From Phytoseiulus persimilis (Eukaryota; Arthropoda; Arachnida; Mesostigmata; Phytoseiidae), in contig CM075104.1 in the NCBI GenBank assembly GCA_037576195.1, positions 192,775 to 256,774 on the forward strand: 64,000 bases of DNA, read 5' to 3'. Below the pieces are notes generated by a model that was not told where the DNA came from, ran no database searches, and was given only the letters and a program-made list of their open reading frames with translations. A program made the translations under genes and the position numbers. Of the stretch, positions 32,315-51,651 are shown one piece after another. Every line of letters begins with the position of its first letter. Within the stretch, counting starts at the first letter, position 1.

Positions 32315-32316
32315 AC

Positions 32317-33738
32317 TTGTTCGGTAAGGTTCATCAGCTGAGTTCTCAGCAAGAGGTTTTCACTGAAAACTACACCAATCTGTTGGCGCAGCTCAACCTC
32401 TTTGCAAAGTCGGTAGTTCAAACTCCCGTGGTCACTGGTGTCATCGAATCTCTGGAATCGATGAAGGCCACTCCGGGGGAACAGAAAAACACCCTTCGTC
32501 TGACTCAGCAAGATCAGGCCGGACTAGGCCTTCGTCAGGATTTCATCGCTGGGAGCATGGTGTCCCATGATCAGGCTAGTCATCTACAGAGTCTCATCTC
32601 TGAGTTACGTCAGGAGGTGACCGAGCTCCAGCTTAAGGTCAGTCACCGAGCGACTGAAGCTCCCAGCTCGGTTCTTTCGACCGAGTACGCACTCTCGGGC
32701 GATATGGACAACATAAAGGATCATGTTCATAAGATCGATGGTAAAGTCCGTCTGCTAGAAGAAACGGTGAAGAAGAACTTCTCCACCACTGCCGAACGCG
32801 CAGTTGACTTGGAGTCAACGTTCAAGTCCTTTGAATCAAACATCAAGGTCTTAACCGACCAACTGGATCTGAAGTTCCAGTTTCAAGACACTTCCAATCA
32901 GGAGTTGAAAGCGAAACTTTCAAGAAAGGCAGCCAACATCAATCATCTCTCACACGAGATTGATATCGTCAAGTCAGATCAAATCAAGATTTCTTCCGTG
33001 GTCTCAAAAGTGAGTTCATCCACCGATCCACCGACAGAGAGTCCACTCCGCTCTCAGGTGGGAGAGTCCACTCCTGGGGACTCAATCCCTTCAGATTCAC
33101 GCGGTGTCCGGGCCGCAATTCAGGCCTTCTTCACTCGGCTGGTGGCTCGGAGTTTTACTGCATCCATTTTCCATCCGTCGTGATACTATCGGAATGATCA
33201 GATGGGGTTAATTTTTTTTCGGATTGTGTCCAGGAGGACTCATCTGGGTACTTGCCTCGAATGGATCTTCAGGATCCCCTACAGCTACCCGTCTCAATCC
33301 TGGGTCTGCAACCGAAACCAATGCCAGTGGTGGGCAGGGCTTTCCCCCTGCTCCTACCACTGCCGCTCCGTCTTCGGAGGATGAAGACTCCACCACTCCA
33401 TCTCCAACAGTCTCATCGACTTCTTCAACCACTCCTCCTCGCTTCATCGTTTCCACCAGAGCATATTGGTGTGCTCGTTTTGATGATGGGTGGTAATGTC
33501 GCCATCGTATTGGCTCGGAGTGCCTGCTTGTTGACGGAAATCATCCGGCTCCATCATAAGTATCTTGTTCTGCCCGAGAGGCATCCAGCGAGTGTGGTGA
33601 TGGAGGGTCAGTTCGTTATTGTAAACGAACTTGATCGATCTGCCGCAGTTTCTGCGCTTCTAGGCATCACAGCCTCTGGAGTCAAATTGTTTTGGCTTTC
33701 TGGGCAATTATTTTGCTTTTCTCTTTTTACAGAATAAA
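32317..33738 (+). pseudogene. Copia-1 antisense accessory gene 1 (truncated; coiled-coil stalk, Cys motif)
   Basis: Unrecognised gene, antisense to Copia-1. An open frame 32317-33183 gives ~288 residues with long heptad-rich helices (residues ~60-230), probably an extracellular stalk. Its 5' end, which would hold the membrane anchor by analogy with its paralogues, is cut off by the Ty3 LTR. A consensus donor GTGAGT is at 33010 and an acceptor (polypyrimidine then GTGTCCAG) ends at 33233. After it one frame is Ser/Thr/Pro/Glu-rich and leads to TRAYWC at 33461-33472, then cysteines at 33497 and 33521: spacing C-x8-C-x7-C, as in the two relatives, but with an in-frame TAA at 33494. A shifted frame stays open to 33737, where the stop lies inside AATAAA (33733-33738). 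Exon joining is uncertain and the gene is probably broken. Confidence 0.5.
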
Positions 33739-33846
33739 GATAAACAATTCGGTTCGTTTGATCATGGTGTTCCTCATTTCTGGGGTCAGAGTGTCAATAC
33801 CCATTTACACTCTCCTACTTAAAGCCGAGATTATGTCCGTAGTGAT

Positions 33847-35378
33847 ATGATCACTTCATTTCACATTCGCAACTGTACGGACATTGTCGCTCTCGTGATG
33901 TTTCCTCGTGTTCTCTACAGTGTCGGGGGTTTCTTTAGTGCCTTGGTGGTTGTGGTCATTTTGACCATTTTAGCCCACGTCTTTCAGGGGCTCTCATTCA
34001 CTTGGTCCTCATCCCACCGGTTTGAGCACTCTCCATGTTTAAGCCATTCAGCAGAGAGCATCCACGGTGCTCAGTCAATGCTGGCTTCATGGGCCGACAT
34101 TCCCCAGCTTGAGACAAGCTATGTCTCACCATCGTTTTCACACCGTCAGGAGTCATCTTCTGTCTCTGACGTGACTCCTGTACTTCTTCCTAGCGAGACC
34201 TTCCTTGAGCTATCATTTGATTCTTCCTCTGTCGTTCAGAGAGTGTTTTTTTCTGGGTTGCCACTCACTCCACTATACGATGCTTCTTCCGAGAATGACG
34301 GTGTTCCGACCCCTGTTCTCATTAGTCCAACTCGAACGTTGCGATCTGTATCCACATCGCTCTCAAGTTCATTCTCTCGTCATGAGTTGGACTCTCTCCA
34401 ATCCTCCCGTGATGCAGCTCTCGAAGCATACATCCGGGATAACGAATTCTTTCTTGGATGGAGTCGGGTCGTGCAGGGGCATATTGATTTCACATCAAGA
34501 CTCCATGCCGACTTAGCCAAATTCCGCTCTGGCACGAATCGATGATCGAACCTGTTGTTCTTCCGACCATCTCCCTCCCTGAGTTGATTTCCTCGTCTCT
34601 TCCAATTTTGAGGTCGTCAAAAAGTTCTTCAATGGGAGAGTCAGTGAGATCTCTTAATAATTTTGAATAGTGAGGTTCTACGTTTTTTTTCTTTGCTATG
34701 TGACTTTTCACGTCTTTGTTTTCCAGAATTCTCCTGCGTTCATCTTGGTTTCCTCAACCGTCGTCCCTGGATCCGTCCTGAGTTCTCAGGTGCTGTTACC
34801 TACTCTCAGTACGGCCGTCATCCCAACGGAGGTATCCGCTGATGATAAGCCTCACTACGAATGGATTGAGCAATCCGTTGCCGAGGAAACCGATCTGGAT
34901 CTGAGTGTCGAGGAATCGAAACCGAAGCGATTCAACTCGAGCACTACACCAGCACCCCCTTCGAGCACCCTCTCGACCTCCACAATTACAGCTCATACCA
35001 CTACTCCAACTCCGACTGACGCCACTGCGTCTCCGACAACAGAGTCAGACAGCAGCAGCTCATCGTCTGACGACCACGGCACCACCGGGTTCAGTGCTCC
35101 GGATGCAGCTACCGACCCACCGATTGATGACGTCACCACCACGGAAGTTTGGTCCATGAGACTTCCCATCCCCACCAGGAGGTACCGATGTGCCATCTTA
35201 GAGTACAATCGACTCTGCAAGTCAGTGCTGGGCAGAAAGTGTATTCTAGAAAGTGTTCTGCGGCTCGAACTTCTCGTATACCAATATGTTGGAAACGAGG
35301 AGTTCGCTGCTGTCTCGGAGCATATGAAATTTCAAGGATCATGCACTGGATTTATATGGTTCTATGCTTAGTAATAAA
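33847..35378 (+). CDS. Copia-1 antisense accessory gene 2 (type II membrane protein, C-x8-C-x7-C)
   Basis: Unrecognised, antisense to Copia-1, 109 bp after gene 1. The first ORF (33847-34545) has a ~26-residue N-terminus, a strong hydrophobic segment (GFFSALVVVVILTILAHVF, ~33935) and a Ser-rich ectodomain. A donor-like GTGAGA (34644) and an acceptor (TTGTTTTCCAG ending 34726) would define an 83-bp intron; reaching that donor in an open frame needs a shift near 34540, so this part is uncertain. The last exon, 34727-35371, is rich in Ser/Thr/Pro/Asp and ends with a ~65-residue domain: cysteines at 35189, 35216 and 35240 (C-x8-C-x7-C), then a hydrophobic, strand-like tail (GSCTGFIWFY). AATAAA overlaps the region just after the stop (35373-35378). 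Convergent with the sense ORF at 35452. Confidence 0.55.
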
Positions 35379-35451
35379 ATCGAATGCCAATACCTCAGGG
35401 GGACCGGATTGGAAGTATTCATTTGGCATTGAAGAGCCAATTCTTAGAGAT

Positions 35452-35946
35452 TCAGATGTTATCAACCGTGGGCTGATATGGTGACTCGATGCCGCTTGGG
35501 CGATCGTCCGCGGTGGGTTGTGTTCTACTCAATTGCTGGTACTGCCTCCGCCGCCATGTTTGGATCAGGCATGTGATGCTGTTAGAGCAGGCATACATCA
35601 CAACAAGTGTAGTGAGTGATGCCGCGTAGTTCAGGAGGAAGTTTGTTCTTTTCGATGGAACGGGTGTAGGTGCTGGGGATTTTTGATGTGTATAGTTATA
35701 GAAGTCAATCCAGATACTGGTTCCGCCAAACGTTGTTCCATTCGGTAACAGGCAGGCTACACCAGGGGAAGCTTTCCCAATGCAGGTCTGGTTGCTTATC
35801 AAGCAGTCACACGGGGAGAATTCGGGACTCATTCCGGATATGGTACAGGGTTGTCTCTCTCGGATGCACTGTGGTGGACAGTTATCCTCGTACTGGAAGT
35901 ACGCGGCCGCTCTTGCCGCTACCATGAGGAGGGCGAACTGTATCAT
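35452..35946 (-). CDS. Copia-1 third ORF: small env-like Cys-rich membrane glycoprotein
   Basis: 164 codons from ATG 35946, in the sense direction of Copia-1 and overlapping the last 65 bp of pol (which ends 35882) in another frame. A signal peptide (MIQFALLMVAARAAA) is followed by an ectodomain with seven cysteines (C-x3-C-x6-C-x11-C-x-C-x6-C-x9-C) and three N-glycosylation sequons (NQT, NGT, NYT). A Pro-rich hinge, a transmembrane segment (~residues 100-126, LLNYAASLTTLVVMYA) and a basic tail (WRRRQ) complete it. This is the plan of a type I membrane glycoprotein, in the position where env sits in retroviruses, but far smaller, with no fusion peptide or furin site seen. The cysteine spacing loosely recalls small cystine-knot proteins such as tick class B evasins; homology is unproven. 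Confidence 0.65.
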   Translation of the reverse strand: MIQFALLMVAARAAAYFQYEDNCPPQCIRERQPCTISGMSPEFSPCDCLISNQTCIGKASPGVACLLPNGTTFGGTSIWIDFYNYTHQKSPAPTPVPSKRTNFLLNYAASLTTLVVMYACSNSITCLIQTWRRRQYQQLSRTQPTADDRPSGIESPYQPTVDNI

Positions 35947-36724
35947 CTGTGATACCTGCAATCGTTCGCAGTCGGATAAACTGAGGTTCTGGTAAGGCTT
36001 TCGTTTCAAGATCTGCCAAGTTTAGTTGCGATGGGCAATGGGTGATTTTGAACTCACCCTCTTCTATTCGTTCCTCCTACCAAAAGTAACGTATGGCAAT
36101 GTGTTTAGAACGCTTTGATACCTGGGCTTCTGTTAGCAGTTGGATGCAACCAGTGTTGTCCACATGAAGTGTCGGAGTGATTTGATATCCGACTTCCTGA
36201 ATCAGTCTGCTAAGCCACGAACAGGTTTTTCCCATTTCGCTGCGAGCCACTATTTCACTTTCAAGGGTGGAAAGAGTGATGCAGTTCTGCCGTCTAGAAG
36301 ACCAGCAAACTGGTGCTCCGCCAAACATCATCACAGCGCCACTGGTACTACACCGAGTACTCCTGCAACCGCCCCAGTCGGCGTCGCAGTAGGCGTCAAT
36401 TTTGGCTTGAACTCCACCAGTATAAGTCGGACCATGGTTCCGGGTCCCTGACAGATACCTCAGTATTTCCAATCCCATGTTCCATAGATGGCGCGTTGGC
36501 TTATCCAAGTATCTGGACATCAGCCCAACCGCATAGGAAATATCTCCTCTCGTTCCCACAGAAACGAACATCGAAGCCCCCACAAGCTCTCTATACTTAG
36601 GAGTAAGATCGATTTCTCCCTCAAATGCAGATTTTGACGTTGCGTCGATTGGTACAGGAGACACTTTGCAATCTGCCATCGGGAATCGATCTAGTAGCTC
36701 GGTGATATATTGGGCTTGATCCAA
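35882..36724 (-). pseudogene. Copia-1 RNase H and pol C-terminus
   Basis: Copia RNase H: YRELVGASMF, YLDKPTRHLWN, AYCDADWGG (~36380) and SSRRQNCITLSTLESE, then KRSKHIAIRY. An in-frame TAG at 36077-36079 interrupts it. The same frame continues with the usual copia C-terminal sequence (HCPSQLNLADLETKALP..QFIRLR) until the stop at 35882-35884. This places the true end of pol inside the start of the small membrane-protein ORF. Confidence 0.88.
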
Positions 36725-36757
36725 GTGGATCCTACCTCCGTCGGGAGAGATCGCAAT

Positions 36758-37734
36758 TCACAATCCCAAGAGAAACTCGAGTGGTCCTGTGGTAAGTTTG
36801 AAGGTTTTCTCTAGTTCCTTCATTATCCTTTGATTCATTTGTTCTGAGTTGGGGCCTATCAGGCAATCATCAACATAGATTAGAACAAATACTCGAGTCG
36901 GAGGGTTGGAAAAGTACAAGCACGGTTCCAACTTGCTTCTGGTCAATCTGACTGTACCAAGGCTCAACAAAGTGTTGCTCAATTTCTGATTGAACATCTT
37001 TGGAGCTTGGACTGTTTCATGGCACGCCTTAAGTAGCTCACAAACCCGGTTTGTGTCATCCTCAAAGCCGGCGGGTTGTTTCATGAAGAGTCTCTTGTCC
37101 AAAGGGGCTGACAAGAAGGCCGTGCATATGTCCGTGTGGTTCAAACGGAGATGCTCCTGGGCGGCAATTGACAGTACTGTCCTAATGGTATCGAACTTCG
37201 CCACAGGGCTGAACAGGCTATCATAGTCAATGCCAGGTCTTTGTTCATATCCTCTTACCACGAGCCTAGCCTTCCTTTCAATTATGTCATTGTTCTTGTC
37301 CGTTTTTAACGAGAAAACCCATTTGTTCGTCAGAACGTTCTGTCCGCGTTCTGGGTCTACCAATTTGTAGACCTGATTGGTTCTGAAGGACTCCAATTCT
37401 AATGCCATTGCCGCAAGCCATTCATTTTTATACTCTGAGCGATACACGTCCGCTAGGTTAAGAGGCACGTCTGCCTGTGAGTTGAACCTGCCTAGGGGGT
37501 CGCTAGTTTCACGATTTGTAGTACTACTTGTTACATTGTAGGCTATCCCTGCCTCAAGTTGGCTCGGCTTCTTTAAGGTACTCCTATCTCTAAGGTTGTA
37601 CCTGCGTCCCTCGGTTTGTGCCTCCATCCGTGCCTGGTTCTGGTCATCGGTGCGTGCGCGCGCTCCTCTGGCCGGAGGGGCTGCTTCGCTGGGTCTCGTG
37701 CCCGGAGCGATGCCTAGCTCATCGTCTACGTTTC
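36758..37734 (-). pseudogene. Copia-1 reverse transcriptase
   Basis: Copia RT beginning at the Copia-2 insertion point (NVDDELG), with YNLRDRS, EWLAAMALELESF, KWVFSLKTDKN, ARLVVRGYEQRPGIDY, LSIAAQEHLRLNHTDICTAF and the catalytic YVDDCLIG (~36870). It ends EFLLGL at 36758. The domain is nearly continuous, but a frame break separates it from the RNase H. The VQAPKMFNQ segment replaces the usual GLxQAxRxWN, a sign of decay. Confidence 0.88.
37730..37734. other. Target-site duplication GTTTC (left) of Copia-2
   Basis: GTTTC at 37730-37734 and at 44176-44180 flank the TG...CA ends of Copia-2. Removing the element and one copy restores the Copia-1 reading frame. Confidence 0.96.
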
Positions 37735-38111
37735 TGATAAGCCTTTTGGGCCTGGCTCTAGCTTCTTTGCGGCTGGATGAGAAGATCGGTGACGCGTACA
37801 AGACTTGCCTGGAGATGACGGCTACTGAATGAAAACGACAATTCTGGTGGACAGAATGTTTGGCTCCCCCAACACACTGAAGTTTTATTCCGGCTTTTAT
37901 AGTCACTGACAGGGAAGAGTTACGCGGCGAACACTGACGTTTGACGTCAGTCTACAGGCGTCCGATTTCTATCTCAGTGATCTACAGTATCGCCTGTGCG
38001 CGGTTGATCATGCTCAAAGTTCACTGACGCTTCGCTTACACGACTGGCGCCTTCCCTGATTACCAAAACTGTGCCGACGACTGCTCTGGGTAAAACATCA
38101 AATACTCAACA
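37735..38111 (-). repeat. 377-bp 3' LTR of Copia-2
   Basis: On the minus strand it runs TGTTGAGTATTTG...AGGCTTATCA. Holds TATAAAAG closely followed by AATAAAAC, a compact promoter plus polyadenylation arrangement. Compared with 43799-44175 I see two substitutions (CTTCTTTG/CTCCTTTG and CAGGGAAG/CAGGGGAG). Confidence 0.95.
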
Positions 38112-38126
38112 GCTCCCTCCTACACA
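38112..38126 (-). other. Polypurine tract of Copia-2
   Basis: Minus strand TGTAGGAGGGAGC directly precedes the 3' LTR start TGTTGAG. It marks the true 3' end of the internal region and so places the plus-strand genes inside the element. Confidence 0.85.
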
Positions 38127-38406
38127 GAACAGTCGCTTGCAGATCATAGCCGGAACCTTCTGATGTGGGGAACATTGCATGTGACATTACTCGGATGCGC
38201 GATGCCGCGATTACAGATCTCTTCAGCGGAAGCATCTATCGAACATGCAATGTGTAGAGACTTCACTAGATACATCATCAGTTCAATGGTTCGAATTCTA
38301 TAGAGAAACTTCAGGCTGATGTCTGTCTAGACATCTTTGTCGCGAAATTTGCTTTCGATTGAAGTGACATACGACCGTATCTTGAGACAAACTCTCGCCA
38401 AAATCG

Positions 38407-38414
38407 TATAAAAG
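38407..38414 (+). promoter_or_regulatory. TATA box of the Copia-2 antisense gene
   Basis: TATAAAAG, 48 bp upstream of the first ATG at 38462, with CTCAATC ~25 bp downstream as a possible initiator. An 11-bp inverted repeat (38172-38182 ACATTGCATGT and 38243-38253) lies further upstream. Points toward the antisense gene, away from gag-pol. Confidence 0.7.
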
Positions 38415-38461
38415 GGGGTGATTCCGAGCACTCAATCGCCAACCCTCCGTAGAGTTGCTCC

Positions 38462-38995
38462 ATGATGCCACCATCTCGTGAACAGCAGCTAGTATCGACC
38501 TCTCTTGACGAGGACGATTTCATTGTCATGACACTGCCGAGGGGAGTCGTTCGCATTCTGCGAGCGTTGCGCAGAATTAGCGGGGTAAGACCCTACCTGA
38601 TTGTGATCGTAGTTGGCATATGCGTGCTGCTCTGGATTATTTTCGGTGAGTAGATTCGAGGGTCATTCCAATGTCGATAATTTTTTTTTTTTTTATCTTT
38701 CTCCCTCCTTTTGGTTTCATCAACCATTAAACTCTTTATTCAGACAATCGCGCGTTGCCGAGGCTAGTGCATCTGGAAGAGGTTCTGAGAGAAAGGGTCG
38801 ATCTTGCTCAGTTCCTCTGCGAAAGGCTCGGACAACACTGGGTGTGCTTATCATCCGCAACCAGGCGATGCCTGGTTCTGCGAACCGAGGTCCCTGTTCC
38901 TGCAGTAGCCGTGTGTCGAATCCAGCGACAGGCGCTACGCATGTTTGTAAATGTGTGTGGCGAGTTTCAGGTTTATTTATGCTTGGAATAATAAA
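38462..38995 (+). CDS. Copia-2 antisense accessory gene: two-exon type II membrane protein
   Basis: Unrecognised protein of 143 residues. Exon 1 38462-38645 and exon 2 38744-38991, joined by a 98-bp phase-1 intron with GTGAGT donor and a long T-tract ending TTTATTCAG. Exon 1 gives a ~43-residue charged N-terminus (MMPPSREQQ..) and one transmembrane segment (PYLIVIVVGICVLLWIIF), with no cleavable signal, so type II. Exon 2 gives a short stalk (LVHLEEVLRERVDLAQF) and a domain with cysteines at 38818, 38845 and 38869 (C-x8-C-x7-C) and a strand-like Cys-containing tail. AATAAA (38990-38995) overlaps the TAA. It lies between pol and the 3' LTR, opposite to gag-pol. Function unknown; the membrane topology and conserved cysteine core suggest a surface protein. 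Confidence 0.75.
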
Positions 38996-39144
38996 CTTTT
39001 CTATACTTTCTCGATAGTAATTCGATGAGTCTTGCTTCTCATGATGATTTCAGCTGGGATTCTTCTCATGACCACAAATCATCTATTTTTCTGAGGCATG
39101 TTTGAAAACATTGGAAAGGGGAGTGGGAGTCTTGACATAACTCG

Positions 39145-39435
39145 ATGAGCACTGATACATCGAGTGCCACTTCCAACCTTTCTTCCGCCTCTAGAGCTAC
39201 TTTCTCTCGATCCGTACTCTCCACGATGGAGCTCCAAGGGATCGACCACGAATGTTTCATTTCTCGTCAAAGTAGCGAGATGAATGTTCGATCATTTGTT
39301 CAGAACTCGCGCGCGGCCCGTGGTGTGGCGAACTATATGTTGTTTGTGATTGCCGTGTTGTCGGTCGTACTTGGAATTCTGGTCTACTCGGGTATGTTTC
39401 AGACGGAAATCGTGCATGGCCAGGTCATCTTCTGA
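39145..39435 (+). CDS. Copia-2 second antisense gene, membrane-anchor exon only
   Basis: ATG 39145, 150 bp after the polyadenylation signal of the previous gene. 96 residues: Ser/Thr-rich N-terminus, then a transmembrane segment (NYMLFVIAVLSVVLGILVYSG, ~residues 63-84). Directly after it is a donor-like GGTATGT (39391), the same place as the intron in the neighbouring gene. No downstream exon fits before the end of pol at 39478, so this looks like a 3'-truncated tandem paralogue. Read without splicing it ends at 39435. Confidence 0.5.
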   Translation: MSTDTSSATSNLSSASRATFSRSVLSTMELQGIDHECFISRQSSEMNVRSFVQNSRAARGVANYMLFVIAVLSVVLGILVYSGMFQTEIVHGQVIF

Positions 39436-43798: not shown

Positions 43799-44175
43799 TG
43801 ATAAGCCTTTTGGGCCTGGCTCTAGCTCCTTTGCGGCTGGATGAGAAGATCGGTGACGCGTACAAGACTTGCCTGGAGATGACGGCTACTGAATGAAAAC
43901 GACAATTCTGGTGGACAGAATGTTTGGCTCCCCCAACACACTGAAGTTTTATTCCGGCTTTTATAGTCACTGACAGGGGAGAGTTACGCGGCGAACACTG
44001 ACGTTTGACGTCAGTCTACAGGCGTCCGATTTCTATCTCAGTGATCTACAGTATCGCCTGTGCGCGGTTGATCATGCTCAAAGTTCACTGACGCTTCGCT
44101 TACACGACTGGCGCCTTCCCTGATTACCAAAACTGTGCCGACGACTGCTCTGGGTAAAACATCAAATACTCAACA
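43799..44175 (-). repeat. 377-bp 5' LTR of Copia-2
   Basis: Same sequence as 37735-38111 apart from two substitutions noticed. Followed outward by the target duplicate GTTTC at 44176-44180. Confidence 0.95.
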
Positions 44176-46714
44176 GTTTCTTTCTCTCTCCCATTTGTCG
44201 TCATCACCAGCGCTGTCTGGCTCGCTGGCGCCGTCGGGTGTTGGCTGAACTTCTTCTTCTTCTTCACCCGTCGGGGATCCGTTGATGTCGGCTCGGGCGG
44301 CATCTCCTGGTGCTGGCGGGAGCTTGTTCTCGTCATCGAACAACGGTGGTGTATCCTTTACCTGGATATCCCGGATCCTGTGTACTCGCGTTGTTCCTAG
44401 CTCCAGGACTCGGTAACTCAGACCGTCCTCGTCTGTTCCGCATACTGCACCAGCGATGGCTCGCGTATCCAGTTTTTCTTTCCCGGGCTGGATGTTGTAG
44501 AACCAACACCTGGTTCCAAATCTCAGGACTCTGTTCAGGTATGGCTTGTGGCCAGTGATCAAATCGAATGGGGACTTCCCAGTTGGCTTATGCTCCCTAG
44601 TGGCGTTGAGACAAAAAGTCCCGAAGTTTATCGCCTCAGCCCAGACTCCTTTTCCGAGGTTGCTGTCAAGGATCATTGTCCTTGCAAGATTGATGCAAAG
44701 AGGGCTTGTAGCCTCTTGTTTTGAAACTCTGAGCCGCCATCCGAGTGAAAATGGTATACCTGCTGTCCTGATCTCAGCCTGAACCACTCGAGGAAGTCCC
44801 GGATCCGATCAAAGACTTCGGCTTTGTTGTGGAGGAAGTAGACCTTTCGGAATCGGCTATAATCGTCAGTCAATGTCAGGAAAGCGTTATGTCTGCCGTA
44901 GGAAGGCGTACTGACGAAGCAGACATCGCTGTTGATCCATCCAATACGAGGGGCGCGTGAGCTGCTGGGTTTCGGCCGAAAGCTAGCTCTTGGCATTTTT
45001 CCTTTTACACAGCTATCACAGCCGAGGAAATCACGTCGTATCCTTGACGCTGCAGCATTGACTTGGGCCATCCGATGTTGATATGAGCGAAATTCCGGTG
45101 CATGTTAGTGAGGCTGATCTTTTTCTTCGGCTTGTTGTTCTCGGCGTTGTTTCCCTCAGCGAAAGCTACGGCATACAGGAGGTAAAGGCCATTCTTTCTT
45201 GTTGCACAAATGGTCACCTCTCCTTGAGTCACACGGACTGTCCTTCTGGAGATCCTGATCTCGAAATCCTCATCAGTAAGTTTCGAGACTGATATGAGGT
45301 TTCGGCGGAGTTTCGGAACGTACAGTACCTCATTCAGTTGGACTGTTATCGGCTTTCCTTCCTGAATGAACGTCACGTGGACGGTTCCGGACCCAGGAGC
45401 GCTCAGGGTTCGGGAACCTCCTAGTCTTACTTGACGTGGTTGTTCAAATGGTACGTAGTCGGACATGTGCTCGCGAGAATTACACATGTGGTAATTTGTT
45501 CCGGAGTCCACCACATACTCGTTGTCAGGTGTCACAATGTGGGACTCTGCACTCCTAGTTTCACAGTTCAGGATCTCGACTACATCAGCTTCTGTGTGAT
45601 GTGCCCTTGCGTGTTGTGAACGTTGGCGGTTGAAGGGTCTCCTTCCACCGCGCCGAGATTGCTGGTTTCGCCTGGGTGGCTGCGAAGATTGTGAGCGATT
45701 CGGGTGTTGCTGTTGGACTCTTCCTTGGTTTTCACTTCCTTGAGGAGTACGGCACTGTGCACGTACATGACCTGGGCGACCACATCCATAGCAGACCTTA
45801 GTTGGTGTGCTAGTCGGCATCCTGCCTCCTCTGGGTCTGTTGTTGAACGTCCTTCGGGTGGGTCGTCTACCTGACGGGCCCCGAAGTCGCGAGAATAGAG
45901 CTGTTACTTCACTAGTATCGAATTTTCCTCTTCGAATTGCTTCCATCTCAATGGCTGATGTTAAGTGGACGAGAGATTGAGCTGTCTCATCTCTGGCAGT
46001 AAAGCTCTGCTTGAACGATTCCCAGTTTGGTGGCAGACTCGAAAGCAGAATCGTGATTTTCAAGTCAGAGGGCAGGGGAACTCCTAGGGCTTCACAGCGG
46101 CTCAATATCTTGTTGAACCTGAGCAGATTTTCGCCAGCGCTTTTATTGGTCAGATACCTGTAGGTGGTGAACTTTGACAGTGCCACTCTCTTCAGACCTC
46201 CATTCGCACTGTTGAATCGTCCGGTGATGTCCCTCCTTATTTCAGGGGCATCAACCGTCTCAGCGTTGGCATGGAAAAGCGAGACCGCTAGATCGGATTG
46301 GAGTGAAGCAAACAGGGTACAGCGTGCAGCACGATTTCCTGCCTCGAATTTTCTTTTCCGGATGTTTGCGGCTGCACTCTTCGCCGTGGCTGGTGGTGGT
46401 ATTAGATTTCCCATTGTCACGTCCAGGGCGAATGGATCAGCGTCCAGTGCTGCAGAAATCATTACTCGCCATTCGGTGTAGTTTGCTCCATCCAGTTTCA
46501 GTTTCACCAGATCTCTTGCTCGGTGTCTTGAGCCCATATCAAAGTCGTTCAAGTCCTTGTCCGTGTCGTCAGTGGTCCCAATGGTCTTCTGGTTGAAGTC
46601 CAACGCCTCATCACCCGTTTTCGAAGAATGACCTGGCATTTCTTCTCCAACCTCACTAAAGCCGTGGGAGCTGCTGGAATCTTCTAGTGTTCGTTGACTC
46701 TCGACTGGATCCAT
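44176..46714 (-). pseudogene. Copia-1 gag, protease, integrase
   Basis: Starts at ATG 46714 (MDPVESQRTLED). Gag with LKLDGANYTEWRVM and LLSSLPPNWESF, zinc knuckle CYGCGRPGHVRAQC, protease YVVDSGTNYHM and PKLRRNLISVSKL. The frame stops at 45005, where the integrase zinc finger (CDSCVKGKM) continues in another frame to 44673 with LTLTDDYSRFRKV and HSDGGSEFQ. A third frame (to 44176) holds NLARTMILDS and FGTRCWFYN. At least two frameshifts, so this older element is dead. Ends at the Copia-2 insertion. Confidence 0.9.
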
Positions 46715-48790: not shown

Positions 48791-48934
48791 GGAAAACAAA
48801 GGTATTCCAAAGATGGCGTGTTGGCTTGTCCAAGTATCTTGAAAGGAAACCGACCGCATAGCTGATATCTCCGCGGCTTGCTATAGAGGCAAACATCGAG
48901 GCCCCCACTAGCTCTCGATACTTCAGATTCAAGT

Positions 48935-49832
48935 CTATTTCTCCCTCAAATGCTGACTTGGATGTGGCATCAATTGGGTAAGTGACATCTTACAGTCAGT
49001 CATTTTGAAACGTTCTAGAATCTCAGCTATGTATTGGGCTTGGTTGATTTCGATCCTCCCTCGGTCTGGTGAGATATTAACTCTCGGTCCCAAAAAGAAC
49101 TCCAGAGGCCTGAACATGATTTCGAATGTTTTCTGGAGCTCTTGGAGTATCGCCTTGGTCAGTTGCTCGGTATGTGAGCCGATCAGGCACTCATCCACAT
49201 AGATTAGGATGAAAACTCTTTTTTTAGAACAATTCTACCGTTCTCAAACTCAGCAGAGTGTCGCTCGATTTCTTATTGAAGCATTTGGGAGCTGGGACGG
49301 TCCCGTATATCGCTTCCAAAAGCTCACAAACTCTTCTGCTACCCTCCTCAAAACCGGCTGGCTGCCGCATGTAAAGTTTCCCGTCGGAAGGAGCTGAGAG
49401 GAATGGGGTGCAGACATCTGCCTGAGTGAGAAAGGGACGTTCTCTGGCTGCTACGGAGAGTACGAGTCGTATCGTTTCAAATCTAGCTACAGGGCTGAAC
49501 AAACTCTCATAGTCGAGACCTGGTCGCTGGGGACAGCCTCGAACCAGAAGTCTCGCCCTCCTCTTGATAATGTTCCCATCCTTGTCAGTCTTCAAGGTGA
49601 ACACCCATCGGTTCGGAAGGACATGCTGTCCTGGAGCCGGCTCAACCAGCTCATAAGCCTGGTTGGATCGGAACGATTCGAGTTCCAAAGCCATCGCTGC
49701 TAGCCACTCATTTCTATGTTTTGATCTTTCAATATCTTCTAGGCTAAATGGTACGTCTACCTGTGAGTTGGAACTGCCTAGATGTTGGCTTGTCTGGGAG
49801 GTCGTATGACCACACGAGGCATGGTTGGCCAT
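48935..49832 (-). pseudogene. Copia-3 reverse transcriptase
   Basis: EWLAAMALELESF, RWVFTLKTDKDGN, ARLLVRGCPQRPGLDY and ETIRLVLSVAARERPFLTQADVCTPF up to 49224. Then, in another frame after a small disruption near 49215-49230, DECLIGSHTEQ (the residue after the second catalytic Asp region) and EFFLGPRVNIS. The YVDD box falls at the disruption, so the enzyme is dead. Confidence 0.83.
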
Positions 49833-49891
49833 ACCTGCCCCGTAGCAATTATACTTGCGTCCCTCGACTTTGTCCTCCGTCCCTGCCGGGT

Positions 49892-50488
49892 CTAGATTCC
49901 TCTTGGTCGACTTCCTCCGTAGTCGACAGCGACCCCTGACTCTTCATCCACATTTCTTTCTCCCTTCCATTCTTCGTCTCCTGCAGTACACGAATCGTTC
50001 GAGTCTTCGGGCGTTGGTTCACTGGAGTCTTCTGGTGTGAGATCACTTTCTTCTTCAGACTGCGGCGGTCGGTTGATGTCTGATGATCCTGGAATGTCCG
50101 GAGGTAGTGGTAGTTCGTTGACGTTTTCAGGCAGAGGTGAGGGTTCCCTTACTGTGATGTCACGGATGCAATGGATGTTCCTTGGTCCATGTTCAAGGAC
50201 TCTGTAGCTTAGTCCATCTTCATCGATGCCGACAATTGCTCCAGCAATTGCTCGTTGATATAGCTTGTCCTTTGTTGGTCGGATGTTGTAAAACCAGCAT
50301 CTTGTGCCAAGTCTTTGAATACGTCCGAGGTATGGTTCCTCGCCGGTGATCATCTCAAACGGAGTTTCACAAACCAGATCATTGAACTTCGTTATGTTGA
50401 GGCAGTGCGTCGCAAAGTTCACAGCCTCAGCCCAAACAGGCTTCTGTAACTCACTGTCAATTATCATAGCTCTAGCAAGGTTCAGCAA
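49892..50488 (-). pseudogene. Copia-3 integrase C-terminal region and linker
   Basis: NLARAMIIDSELQKPVWAEAV, PFEMITGEEPYLG, RLGTRCWFYN, DEDGLSYRVLEHG, then an acidic Ser/Pro/Glu linker ending EEWKGERNVDEES. The last motif is useful because it spans the exact position where Copia-2 inserted in Copia-1. Confidence 0.85.
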
Positions 50489-50498
50489 CGTGAGATTC

Positions 50499-50862
50499 TG
50501 TTGGATTTCAGTCTACTGTGCTCTGTCGGTGGACACTCAATCTGTAAGTACAGTCTGTGGTCTGAAAGATCACGGCACGAAATAAAGAGACGGGGGTTCT
50601 GTTACTCTTACTTAGCTCCTCCTGGGCCTTGCCTTCATTGTGTGTATACCATATATACCCAAACAAGAGTGTGGGTTTGCATGAGCCGAAGGCGGGTGGC
50701 CTTCGGCTCAGGGTCACTTGCGATTCGTGAGAGACTGCTGTACTGTATCTCCCAGTAAGGGCTTGTCGCCCACGGTACTGTATTACCGTCCATGTATACA
50801 CTAAGATGATCGTCTGAACTAAGACGTGTTTCAGATACCAGAAACAGAGTGATATTTCAACA
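50499..50862 (-). repeat. Solo LTR (364 bp) of the Copia-1 LTR family, with target duplication
   Basis: TGTTGGATTT...ATATTTCAACA with GATTC duplicated on both sides (50494-50498, 50863-50867) and no internal sequence: a solo LTR inserted into Copia-3 integrase. Minus strand carries TATATATGG-type and AATAAAG-like signals. Contains a perfect 11-bp hairpin at 50683-50709. Confidence 0.92.
50683..50709. other. Hairpin in LTR (11-bp perfect stem, 5-nt loop)
   Basis: GAGCCGAAGGC, loop GGGTG, GCCTTCGGCTC. The stem is identical in the LTR at 62534-62560 while the loop differs by one base (GGATG). May act at the RNA level (polyadenylation or packaging). Confidence 0.75.
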
Positions 50863-51651
50863 GATTCAATCTCTCAGAAATCGAACTGTGCTCTGGGGTT
50901 CTTGGTGCCGAATACGAATAGTCAAAACCGGTCGACCTGAGAAGTGACTGTACCCTGCTGTTCTTGAATTCAGAACCTCCATCTGAGTGGAAATGATGAG
51001 CCTGCTGCCTTGTTCTAAGCTTGAACCATTTGAAAAAATCACGAATGCGTTCGAAGACCTCTGATTTATTACGGAGAAAGTACGTTTTGGAAATGGCTTT
51101 TACTATCGGACAATGTGAGGAAGGCTGTATGTCATCCGTAAGGAGGCGTTCTTACGAAGCGGACATCATTGCTGATCCACCCGATTAGTTAATAAGTTAT
51201 AGGTAATAAGTTACCTGCTAGGCTTGTTTCGGTAGCTAACGCGATGCATCTTTCCTTTCATACAGCTATCACAGCTGAAAAAATCGGGAATCACTCCATA
51301 ACCGTCTCTTCCTAACATTGACTTGAACCATCCCACGTTGATGTGGGCGAAATTCCGGTGAGCTCCTAGTAGGCGGACCTTCGTTTCATCTTCGGCCTGG
51401 TTTCTTTCCGCGATGTAATTTGCGGAAATTATGTAGACCGTTTTTTTGTTCGGCAAAAACGGTGTATCAGTCGCGGGAGATGATGATCTTCTCAGGTTTG
51501 ATGCTGATGTCGAAACCGTCGTCCGCGAGTTTGGAAGCCGACAGGAGGTTGTTGCGGAGTCTTGGAACGTACAGTACCTCCTTCAGAAGTATGGTGCAGG
51601 GTTTCCCATTCACCATGAGACCAAGACTAACAGCTCCATAACGTGGTGGAA

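What the first reader, a model, noticed from the sequence alone, without database searches (positions are those of the whole stretch)
32315..39435. A gene family carried antisense behind pol in two different copia elements, sharing C-x8-C-x7-C
Seen directly: three plus-strand coding regions, two in Copia-1 (ends 33738 and 35378) and one in Copia-2 (38462-38995), end with a domain having exactly the same cysteine spacing: 33470/33497/33521, 35189/35216/35240, 38818/38845/38869. In each the third Cys is followed by two aliphatic residues, and the C-terminus is a hydrophobic strand-like stretch. The AATAAA signal overlaps the stop codon in two and starts 2 bases after it in the third. Splice acceptors precede the last exon in all three. 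The two genes whose 5' parts survive begin with an uncleaved membrane anchor. Inference: a family of type II membrane proteins has been acquired by copia elements in antisense orientation. Antisense extra ORFs are known in plant Tat-lineage Ty3 elements and in deltaretroviruses; I know of no animal copia precedent.
Basis: partly seen in the sequence, partly recalled or inferred. Interest (0 to 1): 0.93.

Follow-up and report, generated by a model that had tools for sequence, protein, structure and literature searches.

The report
Antisense membrane-protein genes in copia elements
A large and varied group of copia jumping genes in an arthropod genome carries, on the strand opposite its own replication genes, what look like spliced genes for membrane proteins that share one small cysteine domain, and in one family this gene comes in several old, very different versions on otherwise nearly identical elements, as if it were a recognition gene like a virus's surface protein.

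Summary
The core observation holds and is larger than reported. In this arthropod genome, copia elements of at least six pol lineages carry, between pol and the 3' LTR and antisense to gag-pol, one or two genes (A, B) ending in a C-x8-C-x7-C domain (x9 or x10 in two genes); beside them lies a sense gene, S, for a type I membrane protein. Of 94 B-type hits 74 face an S gene within 312 bp, none the other way. Codon constraint (median dN/dS 0.07-0.49), GT-AG sites, TATA boxes and AATAAA support real spliced genes; profile tests support homology of A and B domains. The spacing alone is at chance. Window copies of Copia-1 A and B are broken, and the stop at 33738 is in another frame. New: Copia-2 A' is a sharply bounded hypervariable cassette: of 21 elements with B' at least 90% identical, 14 have A' at most 65%; A' synonymous change is saturated where pol dS is 0.03. 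Best reading: an envelope-like membrane module whose antisense member is an old, exchanged recognition allele. Function is inferred; transcription and species are untested.

The parts
37735..38111 (-). Copia-2 3' LTR (TGATAA...CAACA); 5-bp target duplication GTTTC
   Evidence: 379 bp aligned with the other LTR, 2 mismatches (two of the aligned bases belong to the flanks); flanks read
43799..44175 (-). Copia-2 5' LTR
38407..38413 (+). TATA box TATAAAA of the antisense A' gene, inside the element and outside the LTR
   Evidence: present in 13 of 13 aligned copies, in L012 too, absent in L014 and L015
38462..38645 (+). Copia-2 antisense gene A', exon 1: Arg-rich N-terminus and membrane anchor
   Evidence: open in this copy
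38646..38743 (+). A' intron, GT-AG, phase 1
   Evidence: GT in 13 of 13 and AG in 12 of 13 aligned copies
38744..38991 (+). A' exon 2 with the C-x8-C-x7-C-x14-C domain; AATAAA at 38990-38995
   Evidence: (dN/dS 0.07)
39145..39391 (+). Copia-2 antisense gene B', exon 1 with membrane anchor; exon 2 lost by deletion (junction near 39405)
   Evidence: both exons open in L010, L011 and L013
39478..43752 (-). Copia-2 gag-pol (copia order gag, integrase, RT), as three ORFs
32315..33634 (+). Copia-1 antisense gene A, broken copy: coiled-coil exon, acceptor at 33233, last exon with two in-frame stops; cut at about 32315
   Evidence: last exon open in other copies
33847..35371 (+). Copia-1 antisense gene B, broken by an internal deletion: exon 1 33847-34643, intron 34644-34726, exon 2 34727-35371 with Ser/Thr-rich stalk and domain; AATAAA 35373-35378
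35452..35946 (-). Copia-1 sense gene S: type I membrane protein, Cys-rich ectodomain, 164 aa plus stop, open
35885..37735 (-). Copia-1 pol, 3' part (gag-pol continues at 44176-45757 beyond the Copia-2 insertion)

Best explanation
A clade of Ty1/copia elements in an arthropod carries a three-part membrane-protein module between pol and the 3' LTR. S is encoded in the sense strand and overlaps or abuts the end of pol: a signal-like N-terminus, a Cys-rich ectodomain, one membrane segment, a conserved tail. A and B are encoded antisense; A has its own TATA promoter near the 3' LTR, and A and B have one intron and a poly(A) signal each. They are type II membrane proteins: cytoplasmic N-terminus, membrane anchor, sometimes a Ser/Thr-rich stalk, and a C-terminal Cys domain outside the cell or particle. 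Introns can persist on this strand because the replicating RNA is the sense strand, where they are not introns. The most likely work of the module is at the surface of the particle or the donor cell: passing capsids between cells or out of the soma, with B/S as the constant part and A' as the part that recognises or excludes. In Copia-2 this part exists as several old alleles that are exchanged as a cassette among young, nearly identical elements, as envelope subgroups are exchanged among retroviruses. Shown: gene anatomy, homology, orientation, constraint, old A' alleles on young backbones. Inferred: transcription, membrane topology, surface location, transmission, recognition.
For: Orientation: B-type with S opposite and 3' within 312 bp in 74 of 94, 0 same strand; A-type followed by B-type on the same strand in 71 of 82, 0 opposite; pol followed by S on the same strand in 80 of 99, 0 opposite. 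Further lineages: L044-type 18 of 47 and L043-type 20 of 51 facing S, another 2 and 8 facing an S-less pol. Constraint: median dN/dS A exon 1 0.11, A domain 0.24, B exon 1 0.37, B exon 2 0.28, A' exon 1 0.18, A' exon 2 0.07, B' domain 0.21, S 0.36 and 0.20. In the 13 aligned copies TATA 13, GT donor 13, AG acceptor 12, AATAAA 12, although mean pairwise identity is 46% in A' exon 1 and 62% in exon 2. Homology: a profile of A-type domains alone ranks B-type domains next among 3090 ORFs; hhalign A against B E 1.2e-5. Topology: more K/R before than after the hydrophobic segment in A', B', L044 b, L045 B, L047 A and L048 (for A', B' and L047 A the exon ends soon after the segment, so the count behind it is cut short). 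Cassette: over all elements with both hits, 21 have B' at least 90% identical to one B', and 14 of them have A' at most 65% identical to one A'; 41 of 46 aligned pairs with both flanks at least 92% have cassettes under 65%; dS of A' exon 1 1.74 and exon 2 saturated against 0.03 (pol 3' part) and 0.02 (gag and 5' pol) for L010 against the window copy. Relatives of S exist in other samples, 31-46% identical.
Against: No RNA or protein evidence. No fold match for S (model pLDDT 70.7) and no usable model of the domain (pLDDT 51.6). No Pfam match above its curated cut-off for A, B or S. Exon 1 of A' (cytoplasmic and membrane part) differs more than the outer domain between alleles, which is not what a plain receptor-binding head predicts. 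Eight of the 13 aligned copies were chosen because their A' was divergent; among the five not so chosen, 3 of 6 pairs with like flanks have cassettes under 65% and 5 of 6 under 80%. In Copia-1 no gene is hypervariable, and in the L044 family b is only moderately more variable than S (88% against 98%). L043-type antisense genes also occur beside pols without a detected S (8 cases). In the L043 gene the segment has more K/R after than before it (3 against 1). One L044-type hit has a same-strand S within 4 kb. Profile links of the other lineages to A and B are weak in hhalign (probability 9 and 29). Three copies left out of the 13 are poorer in part: L014 lacks TATA and AG and has lost the second Cys, L015 lacks TATA.
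Confidence: 0.5

Rival explanations
1. The A'/B proteins act in the cell that carries the element, not in transmission: they block re-entry or co-expression of elements of the same type (superinfection exclusion or immunity cassette), which keeps many alleles by frequency-dependent selection.
For: Old alleles on young backbones with sharp borders behind the TATA box and before B' exon 1; the cassette holds the whole A' coding unit; own promoter outside the LTR.
Against: No assay; the same pattern would follow from diversification of a receptor-binding protein; the two other families compared do not show it.
Confidence: 0.2
2. The antisense genes serve against host defence or host physiology (decoy or ligand at the cell surface) and have no part in particle spread.
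For: A type II protein with a small Cys domain, in B-type genes with a Ser/Thr-rich stalk, resembles a surface ligand in build; tandem arrays of a derived antisense gene exist without pol or S in the stretch read.
Against: Linkage to S and pol; no homologue found by protein search, though that search reaches only near relatives.
Confidence: 0.15
3. The antisense transcripts matter as RNA (regulation of the element by antisense or small RNA) and the reading frames are incidental.
For: Antisense transcripts are discussed as regulators in other retroelements (PMC7264820 and PMC10186651, passages read); TATA present. In the short A' exon 2 one sense frame is free of stops in 4 of 6 copies, and the codon-complement sense frame also gives a low ratio, 0.13.
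Against: Strong codon constraint in the antisense frame; in A exon 1 each sense frame has 11-22 stops per copy; splice sites kept while the DNA sequence itself is replaced.
Confidence: 0.06
4. These are host genes into which copia elements happened to insert, or chance frames.
For: The spacing motif alone is common; some hits are not beside a detected partner (20 of 94 B-type without S, 11 of 82 A-type without B).
Against: [quoted passage not shown]); pairing counts with no reversals; some unpaired hits are expected because the S and pol lists are capped.
Confidence: 0.02

Closest known systems
Antisense extra ORFs (aORF-3R) of plant LTR retrotransposons: Grande gene23, RIRE2, Retand (PMC7264820, passages read)
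   Same: Antisense gene between pol and 3' LTR, conserved among copies, own upstream promoter in Grande, origin unknown
   Different: Plants; Retand is a Gypsy (Ty3) lineage (abstract start), the others Ty3 as I recall; products in part nuclear; no membrane anchor, Cys domain or hypervariable cassette in the passages read
Retroviral antisense genes: HIV-1 asp, HTLV-1 HBZ (PMC10186651, passages read)
   Same: Antisense protein gene near the 3' end; ASP is a membrane protein found on the viral envelope
   Different: asp overlaps env and its promoter is in the 3' LTR; here A and B have their own stretch of DNA and A an internal TATA; sequences were not compared
sORF2 of MDG1-group Ty3 elements (PMC11952523, abstract and result sections 8 and 10 read)
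   Same: Accessory membrane protein of an arthropod LTR element, linked there to cell-to-cell transfer
   Different: All candidates of that paper are in forward orientation, 63-107 aa, selected for a myristoylation motif, ectodomain about 30 residues; S is about 165 aa with a longer Cys-rich ectodomain and no MG start
ORF3 genes of bdelloid rotifer LTR elements (PMC5408684, passages read)
   Same: Extra membrane or coiled-coil genes behind pol in animal elements
   Different: Retrovirus-like, not copia; the passages read report no antisense coding gene
Env-like genes of plant copia Sireviruses and subgroup exchange of retroviral env (both recalled, not read)
   Same: Copia elements with a putative env; exchange of surface-protein alleles on like backbones
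   Different: Sense strand; no antisense partner that I recall

Membership tests
Ty1/copia LTR retrotransposon | copia-type gag and RVT_2 reverse transcriptase | tested here: met
   PF14223 1.5e-16 in the Copia-2 gag ORF and PF07727 2.3e-44 in Copia-1 pol; Copia-2 gag-pol is 38-46% identical to the Copia-1 gag-pol of L036
Ty1/copia LTR retrotransposon | Integrase upstream of reverse transcriptase | tested here: met
   rve in the gag-proximal ORF (PF00665 6.7e-06, under its curated cut-off), RT in the later ORFs
Ty1/copia LTR retrotransposon | LTR pair with 5-bp target duplication | tested here: met
   window, L009, L010, L011; L013 aligned only in part
LTR-element antisense extra ORF (aORF-3R) | Antisense coding gene between pol and 3' LTR, kept in most copies | tested here: met
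LTR-element antisense extra ORF (aORF-3R) | Antisense transcription from an upstream promoter | not testable with these tools
   TATA box in 13 of 13 aligned Copia-2 copies, 14 of 16 with L012, L014 and L015, but no RNA data
LTR-element antisense extra ORF (aORF-3R) | Homology to the plant aORFs | not tested
   no plant aORF sequence was compared
Retroviral / errantiviral Env | Sense gene behind pol for a type I protein with signal peptide and anchor | tested here: inconclusive
   S fits position and build; signal peptide judged by eye only
Retroviral / errantiviral Env | Homology to a known viral fusion protein | tested here: not met
   no Pfam match above cut-off, no PDB fold match at E<=0.001 with a model of middling confidence; BFVD search not answered
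FAST/sORF2-like fusogen | N-terminal MGxxxS/T and short ectodomain of about 30 residues | tested here: not met
   the seven S relatives and the window S start M-E, M-I, M-K or M-L and have about 80 residues between start segment and anchor
Type II membrane protein | Single uncleaved anchor, N-terminus inside by charge | tested here: inconclusive
   anchor and charge bias in 6 gene forms, L043 against it; the Copia-1 A segment spans the intron and was judged by eye

The most novel reading that the evidence does not exclude
A whole clade of animal copia elements are, or recently were, complex-retrovirus-like agents that encode surface proteins on the antisense strand as intron-bearing genes, and in one family the antisense protein is a recognition or exclusion determinant kept as many old alleles and exchanged as a promoter-to-stop cassette among young copies, comparable to env subgroups or phage immunity cassettes.
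Probability: 0.35. Interest if true: 0.95.

Novelty: new variant of a known kind. Interest (0 to 1): 0.84.

Why it matters
If the reading holds, intron-bearing protein genes can be stable parts of a retroelement when they sit on the strand that is not packaged, and animal copia elements have membrane modules like those of retroviruses. The A' cassette adds a direct handle on an open question: what keeps allelic diversity in a selfish element, spread between cells and hosts or exclusion of rivals. No paper describing antisense protein genes in an animal copia element was among the rows listed (open-access PMC papers, best-ranked rows only).

Tried and rejected
Chance motif: rejected as the whole explanation, although the spacing alone is at chance. 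Sense-strand reading of the same region: stops in every sense frame of A exon 1; less clear for the short A' exon 2, where one sense frame is open in 4 of 6 copies. Host gene beside elements: disfavoured by orientation counts. Extra intron in Copia-1 A leading to the TAA under the AATAAA: considered because that frame is long; rejected because in L036, L038, L039 and L040 (L037 is nearly identical to L036) the Cys frame ends at one conserved TGA. Known protein families: only matches under the cut-offs. Fold of S: no match. Domain fold: model too weak to use. Viral contigs: one scan with one S relative, none. Homologues of B elsewhere: none.

Rows left out before counts: one search used 49 of 78 A rows, 35 of 53 A' rows, 59 of 89 B rows and 37 of 70 B' rows (the stronger ones; cut between E 3.9e-5 and 9.2e-4) and 150 S rows of 153 matches. 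One search used 32 A' and 35 B' rows. The 13-copy alignment leaves out L012, L014 and L015, and eight of its copies were picked for a divergent A' beside a like B' and pol. My own slips: the A' exon 2 query and two proteins were in a wrong frame (right frames from then on, Pfam redone); B exon 1 was set one base off, so its right value is the row '+1' (0.37).
Full report
What was given. A reader of raw sequence saw three plus-strand genes behind minus-strand copia pol, all ending in C-x8-C-x7-C, and proposed type II membrane proteins carried antisense by copia elements.

The place. The window is G000:C4:192775-256774 of a 181-Mb genome. The host is an arthropod: 112 matches to the cuticle family PF00379 (that this family marks arthropods is my knowledge); the species is not known to me. 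Copia-2 (LTRs 37735-38111 and 43799-44175, 2 mismatches over 379 aligned bases, target duplication GTTTC) lies inside the pol of Copia-1. Gag, integrase and RT are of copia type.

Check of the observation. The motif alone is weak: it occurs 7 times in the window, 5 times free of stops. The window copies are mostly damaged. Copia-1 A has two stops in the Cys frame, no splice donor and no intact membrane segment; Copia-1 B has a frame-breaking deletion of about 90 bp; Copia-2 A' is open; Copia-2 B' has lost exon 2, together with most of S, by a deletion of about 1.5 kb.

Other copies. DNA searches found 7 further places for Copia-2 A' and 7, one of them weak, for Copia-1 B exon 2. Fourteen stretches of about 10 kb were compared. 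The four Copia-2 copies with both LTRs in hand (L009, L010, L011, L013; LTR pairs 97.4-98.2% identical) run 5' LTR, gag-pol, S, then antisense B' and antisense A', then 3' LTR; L013 is interrupted in pol. Copia-1 copies have S, antisense B and antisense A in the same order. S is a sense gene behind pol: seven relatives from other samples are 31-46% identical, with six invariant cysteines in a 13-sequence alignment.

How general. Searches of the own genome with single proteins (the S and pol lists are capped, so counts are lower bounds) were paired by position. B-type domains: 74 of 94 have S on the opposite strand 3' of them within 312 bp, none on the same strand. A-type: 71 of 82 are followed by a B-type domain on the same strand, none on the opposite. 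Pol: 80 of 99 are followed by S on the same strand, none opposite. About half of the S genes (74 of 144) had a B-type partner in those lists. In three lineages without one, read (L043, L044, L048), antisense genes with the same Cys pattern are present. Searches with two of them gave 18 of 47 and 20 of 51 hits facing S, and 2 and 8 more facing a pol without a detected S; one L044-type hit had a same-strand S, and 27 and 23 hits found no partner, several of them in tandem arrays. The pols are 38-48% identical to Copia-2 pol, so the antisense domain is old in the clade. Of the 13 genes aligned, L047 A has x10 and one L044 gene x9 in place of x8 in the first spacer.

Homology of the domains. A profile of A-type domains only, searched against 3090 ORFs from the window and fetched loci, ranks B-type and L043-type ORFs next (E 3e-4 to 0.2), with L048 at 0.8 and the first unrelated ORF at 1.2. 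A profile of B-type domains finds A-type at E 0.001 to 0.15 and an unrelated ORF at 0.46, before L043 at 0.74. A profile of the other lineages finds A' at E 5e-4 and B at 0.004, unrelated ORFs from 0.42. hhalign gives A against B E 1.2e-5, probability 81; A against the others 0.0036, probability 9; B against the others 5.9e-4, probability 29. Single-sequence searches also cross between B' and B at E about 0.002.

Are they genes? Median dN/dS between copies: Copia-1 A exon 1 0.11 (wrong frames 1.39 and 2.80), A last exon 0.49, A domain 0.24, B exon 1 0.37 (wrong frames 1.05 and 1.04), B exon 2 0.28; Copia-2 A' exon 1 0.18, A' exon 2 0.07 (wrong frames 1.86 and 2.83), B' exon 1 0.47, B' exon 2 0.47, B' domain 0.21; S 0.36 and 0.20. 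The sense frame whose third positions coincide also looks low (0.19; 0.13), as it must. In A exon 1 each sense frame has 11-22 stops per copy; in the short A' exon 2 one sense frame is open in 4 of 6 copies. Several single copies carry stops or frameshifts in the antisense frames too (L039, L040, L041, L014 and the window), as dead copies do. Donors, acceptors, stops and AATAAA are aligned. A TATA box precedes A' in 6 of 8 copies, and TATTTAAG precedes A in the 5 Copia-1 copies printed. No TATA was looked for before B.

Topology. A', B', L044 b, L045 B, L047 A and L048 have one hydrophobic segment with more K/R before than after (the count behind is cut by the exon end in A', B' and L047 A); L043 does not follow this; in Copia-1 A the segment is split by the intron and was judged by eye; Copia-1 B has hydrophobic stretches near its start and at the start of exon 2. 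B-type exons are 24-36% Ser+Thr. S has a hydrophobic start, an ectodomain with six to eight cysteines and one anchor.

The hypervariable cassette. Comparing copies gene by gene, L010 and the window are 98.6% identical in gag, 98.5-98.7% in pol and 96% in B' exon 1, but 76% in A' exon 2, and blastn finds no match for A' exon 1 at E 1e-5. Synonymous distance: gag and 5' pol 0.02, 3' pol 0.03, B' exon 1 0.07, A' exon 1 1.74, A' exon 2 saturated. Eight more copies, picked for a divergent A', were fetched and 13 aligned from LTR to B' exon 1. Identity falls sharply just behind the TATA box and returns before B' exon 1. Of 78 pairs, 46 have both flanks at least 92% identical, and 41 of these have a cassette under 65%; among the five copies not picked this way it is 3 of 6, and 5 of 6 under 80%. 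Without any picking, over all elements with both an A' and a B' row, 21 have B' at least 90% identical to L010 B'; their A' is at most 65% identical to the window A' in 14, 75% in 1 and over 80% in 6. By eye there are at least five allele classes: win/L009/L010/L011/L013 (itself diverse), L053/L058, L052/L056/L054/L057, L059, L055. In the 13 copies TATA is kept in 13, GT in 13, AG in 12 (not L013), AATAAA in 12 (not L013); L055 has one stop and L053 lacks the third Cys. Of three copies left out, L012 has TATA and a donor-like site, L014 lacks TATA, AG and the second Cys and has two stops in exon 2, L015 lacks TATA. Such distances are hard to reach on backbones so young, so the cassette must be exchanged between elements, or the flanks homogenised around it. 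Controls: no Copia-1 gene shows it (exon means 90-94%, introns 84-85%); in the L044 family b is 88% where S is 98%. Exon 1 (cytoplasmic and membrane part) differs more than the outer domain, against a simple receptor-head picture.

How it may work. Inference: the sense genome RNA does not contain these introns as introns, so spliced genes can be kept antisense; they need their own promoter, and A and A' have a TATA box; their products would go to the membrane beside S. A transmission or recognition role fits the module and the allele exchange best, exclusion of like elements next. Structure gave no help: S pLDDT 70.7 without a PDB match, domain pLDDT 51.6.

Known relatives. Antisense extra ORFs are known in plant LTR elements (PMC7264820, passages) and retroviruses (PMC10186651, passages); the sORF2-like genes of insect Ty3 elements are all sense (PMC11952523, abstract and sections 8 and 10); extra ORFs occur in bdelloid LTR elements (PMC5408684, passages). 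The rows listed showed no antisense coding gene in an animal copia element; they cover open-access papers only, and subscription papers and Repbase notes were not searched.

Verdict. Observation partly confirmed, interpretation supported and enlarged. New variant of a known kind (antisense extra genes of LTR elements), with a feature, the antisense hypervariable cassette, for which I recall no precedent in LTR retrotransposons; no literature search was made for that feature.

Noticed in passing
L051 (G000:C2:5594000-5600600) and G000:C2:5663986-5678496: Tandem array of a 1389-bp unit (96.5-99% identical between units in L051), with a 322-aa ORF that fuses two antisense proteins (c and b) of the L044 family; neither S nor pol was found in L051. 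Candidate satellite or host-kept gene cluster.
   Followed up: partly
G000:C2:7019383-7023070: Three L043-type antisense domains about 1.72 kb apart in the same direction: another small tandem array.
   Followed up: no
L043:1720-2703, minus strand: Long sense ORF (328 aa) between S and the antisense gene in this lineage; no Pfam match above cut-off.
   Followed up: partly
L044:272-892, minus strand: Third antisense ORF (c) with a Cys-rich N-terminus in the L044 family; open in the C2 copy, not open over its length in the C1 copy.
   Followed up: partly
L036 and L037: Two Copia-1 copies are 98.6% identical in the antisense region but only 80-83% in the gag-pol part, which suggests a mosaic.
   Followed up: partly
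L049 (G000:C2:47294000-47298500): Broken relative of gene A (long N-terminal ORF, anchor, C-x8-C-x7-C-x14-C) without a B-type partner in the lists.
   Followed up: partly
window 48804-51465: A third, much degraded copia pol (53-83% identical to Copia-1 pieces) on the minus strand; no antisense domain seen beside it.
   Followed up: partly
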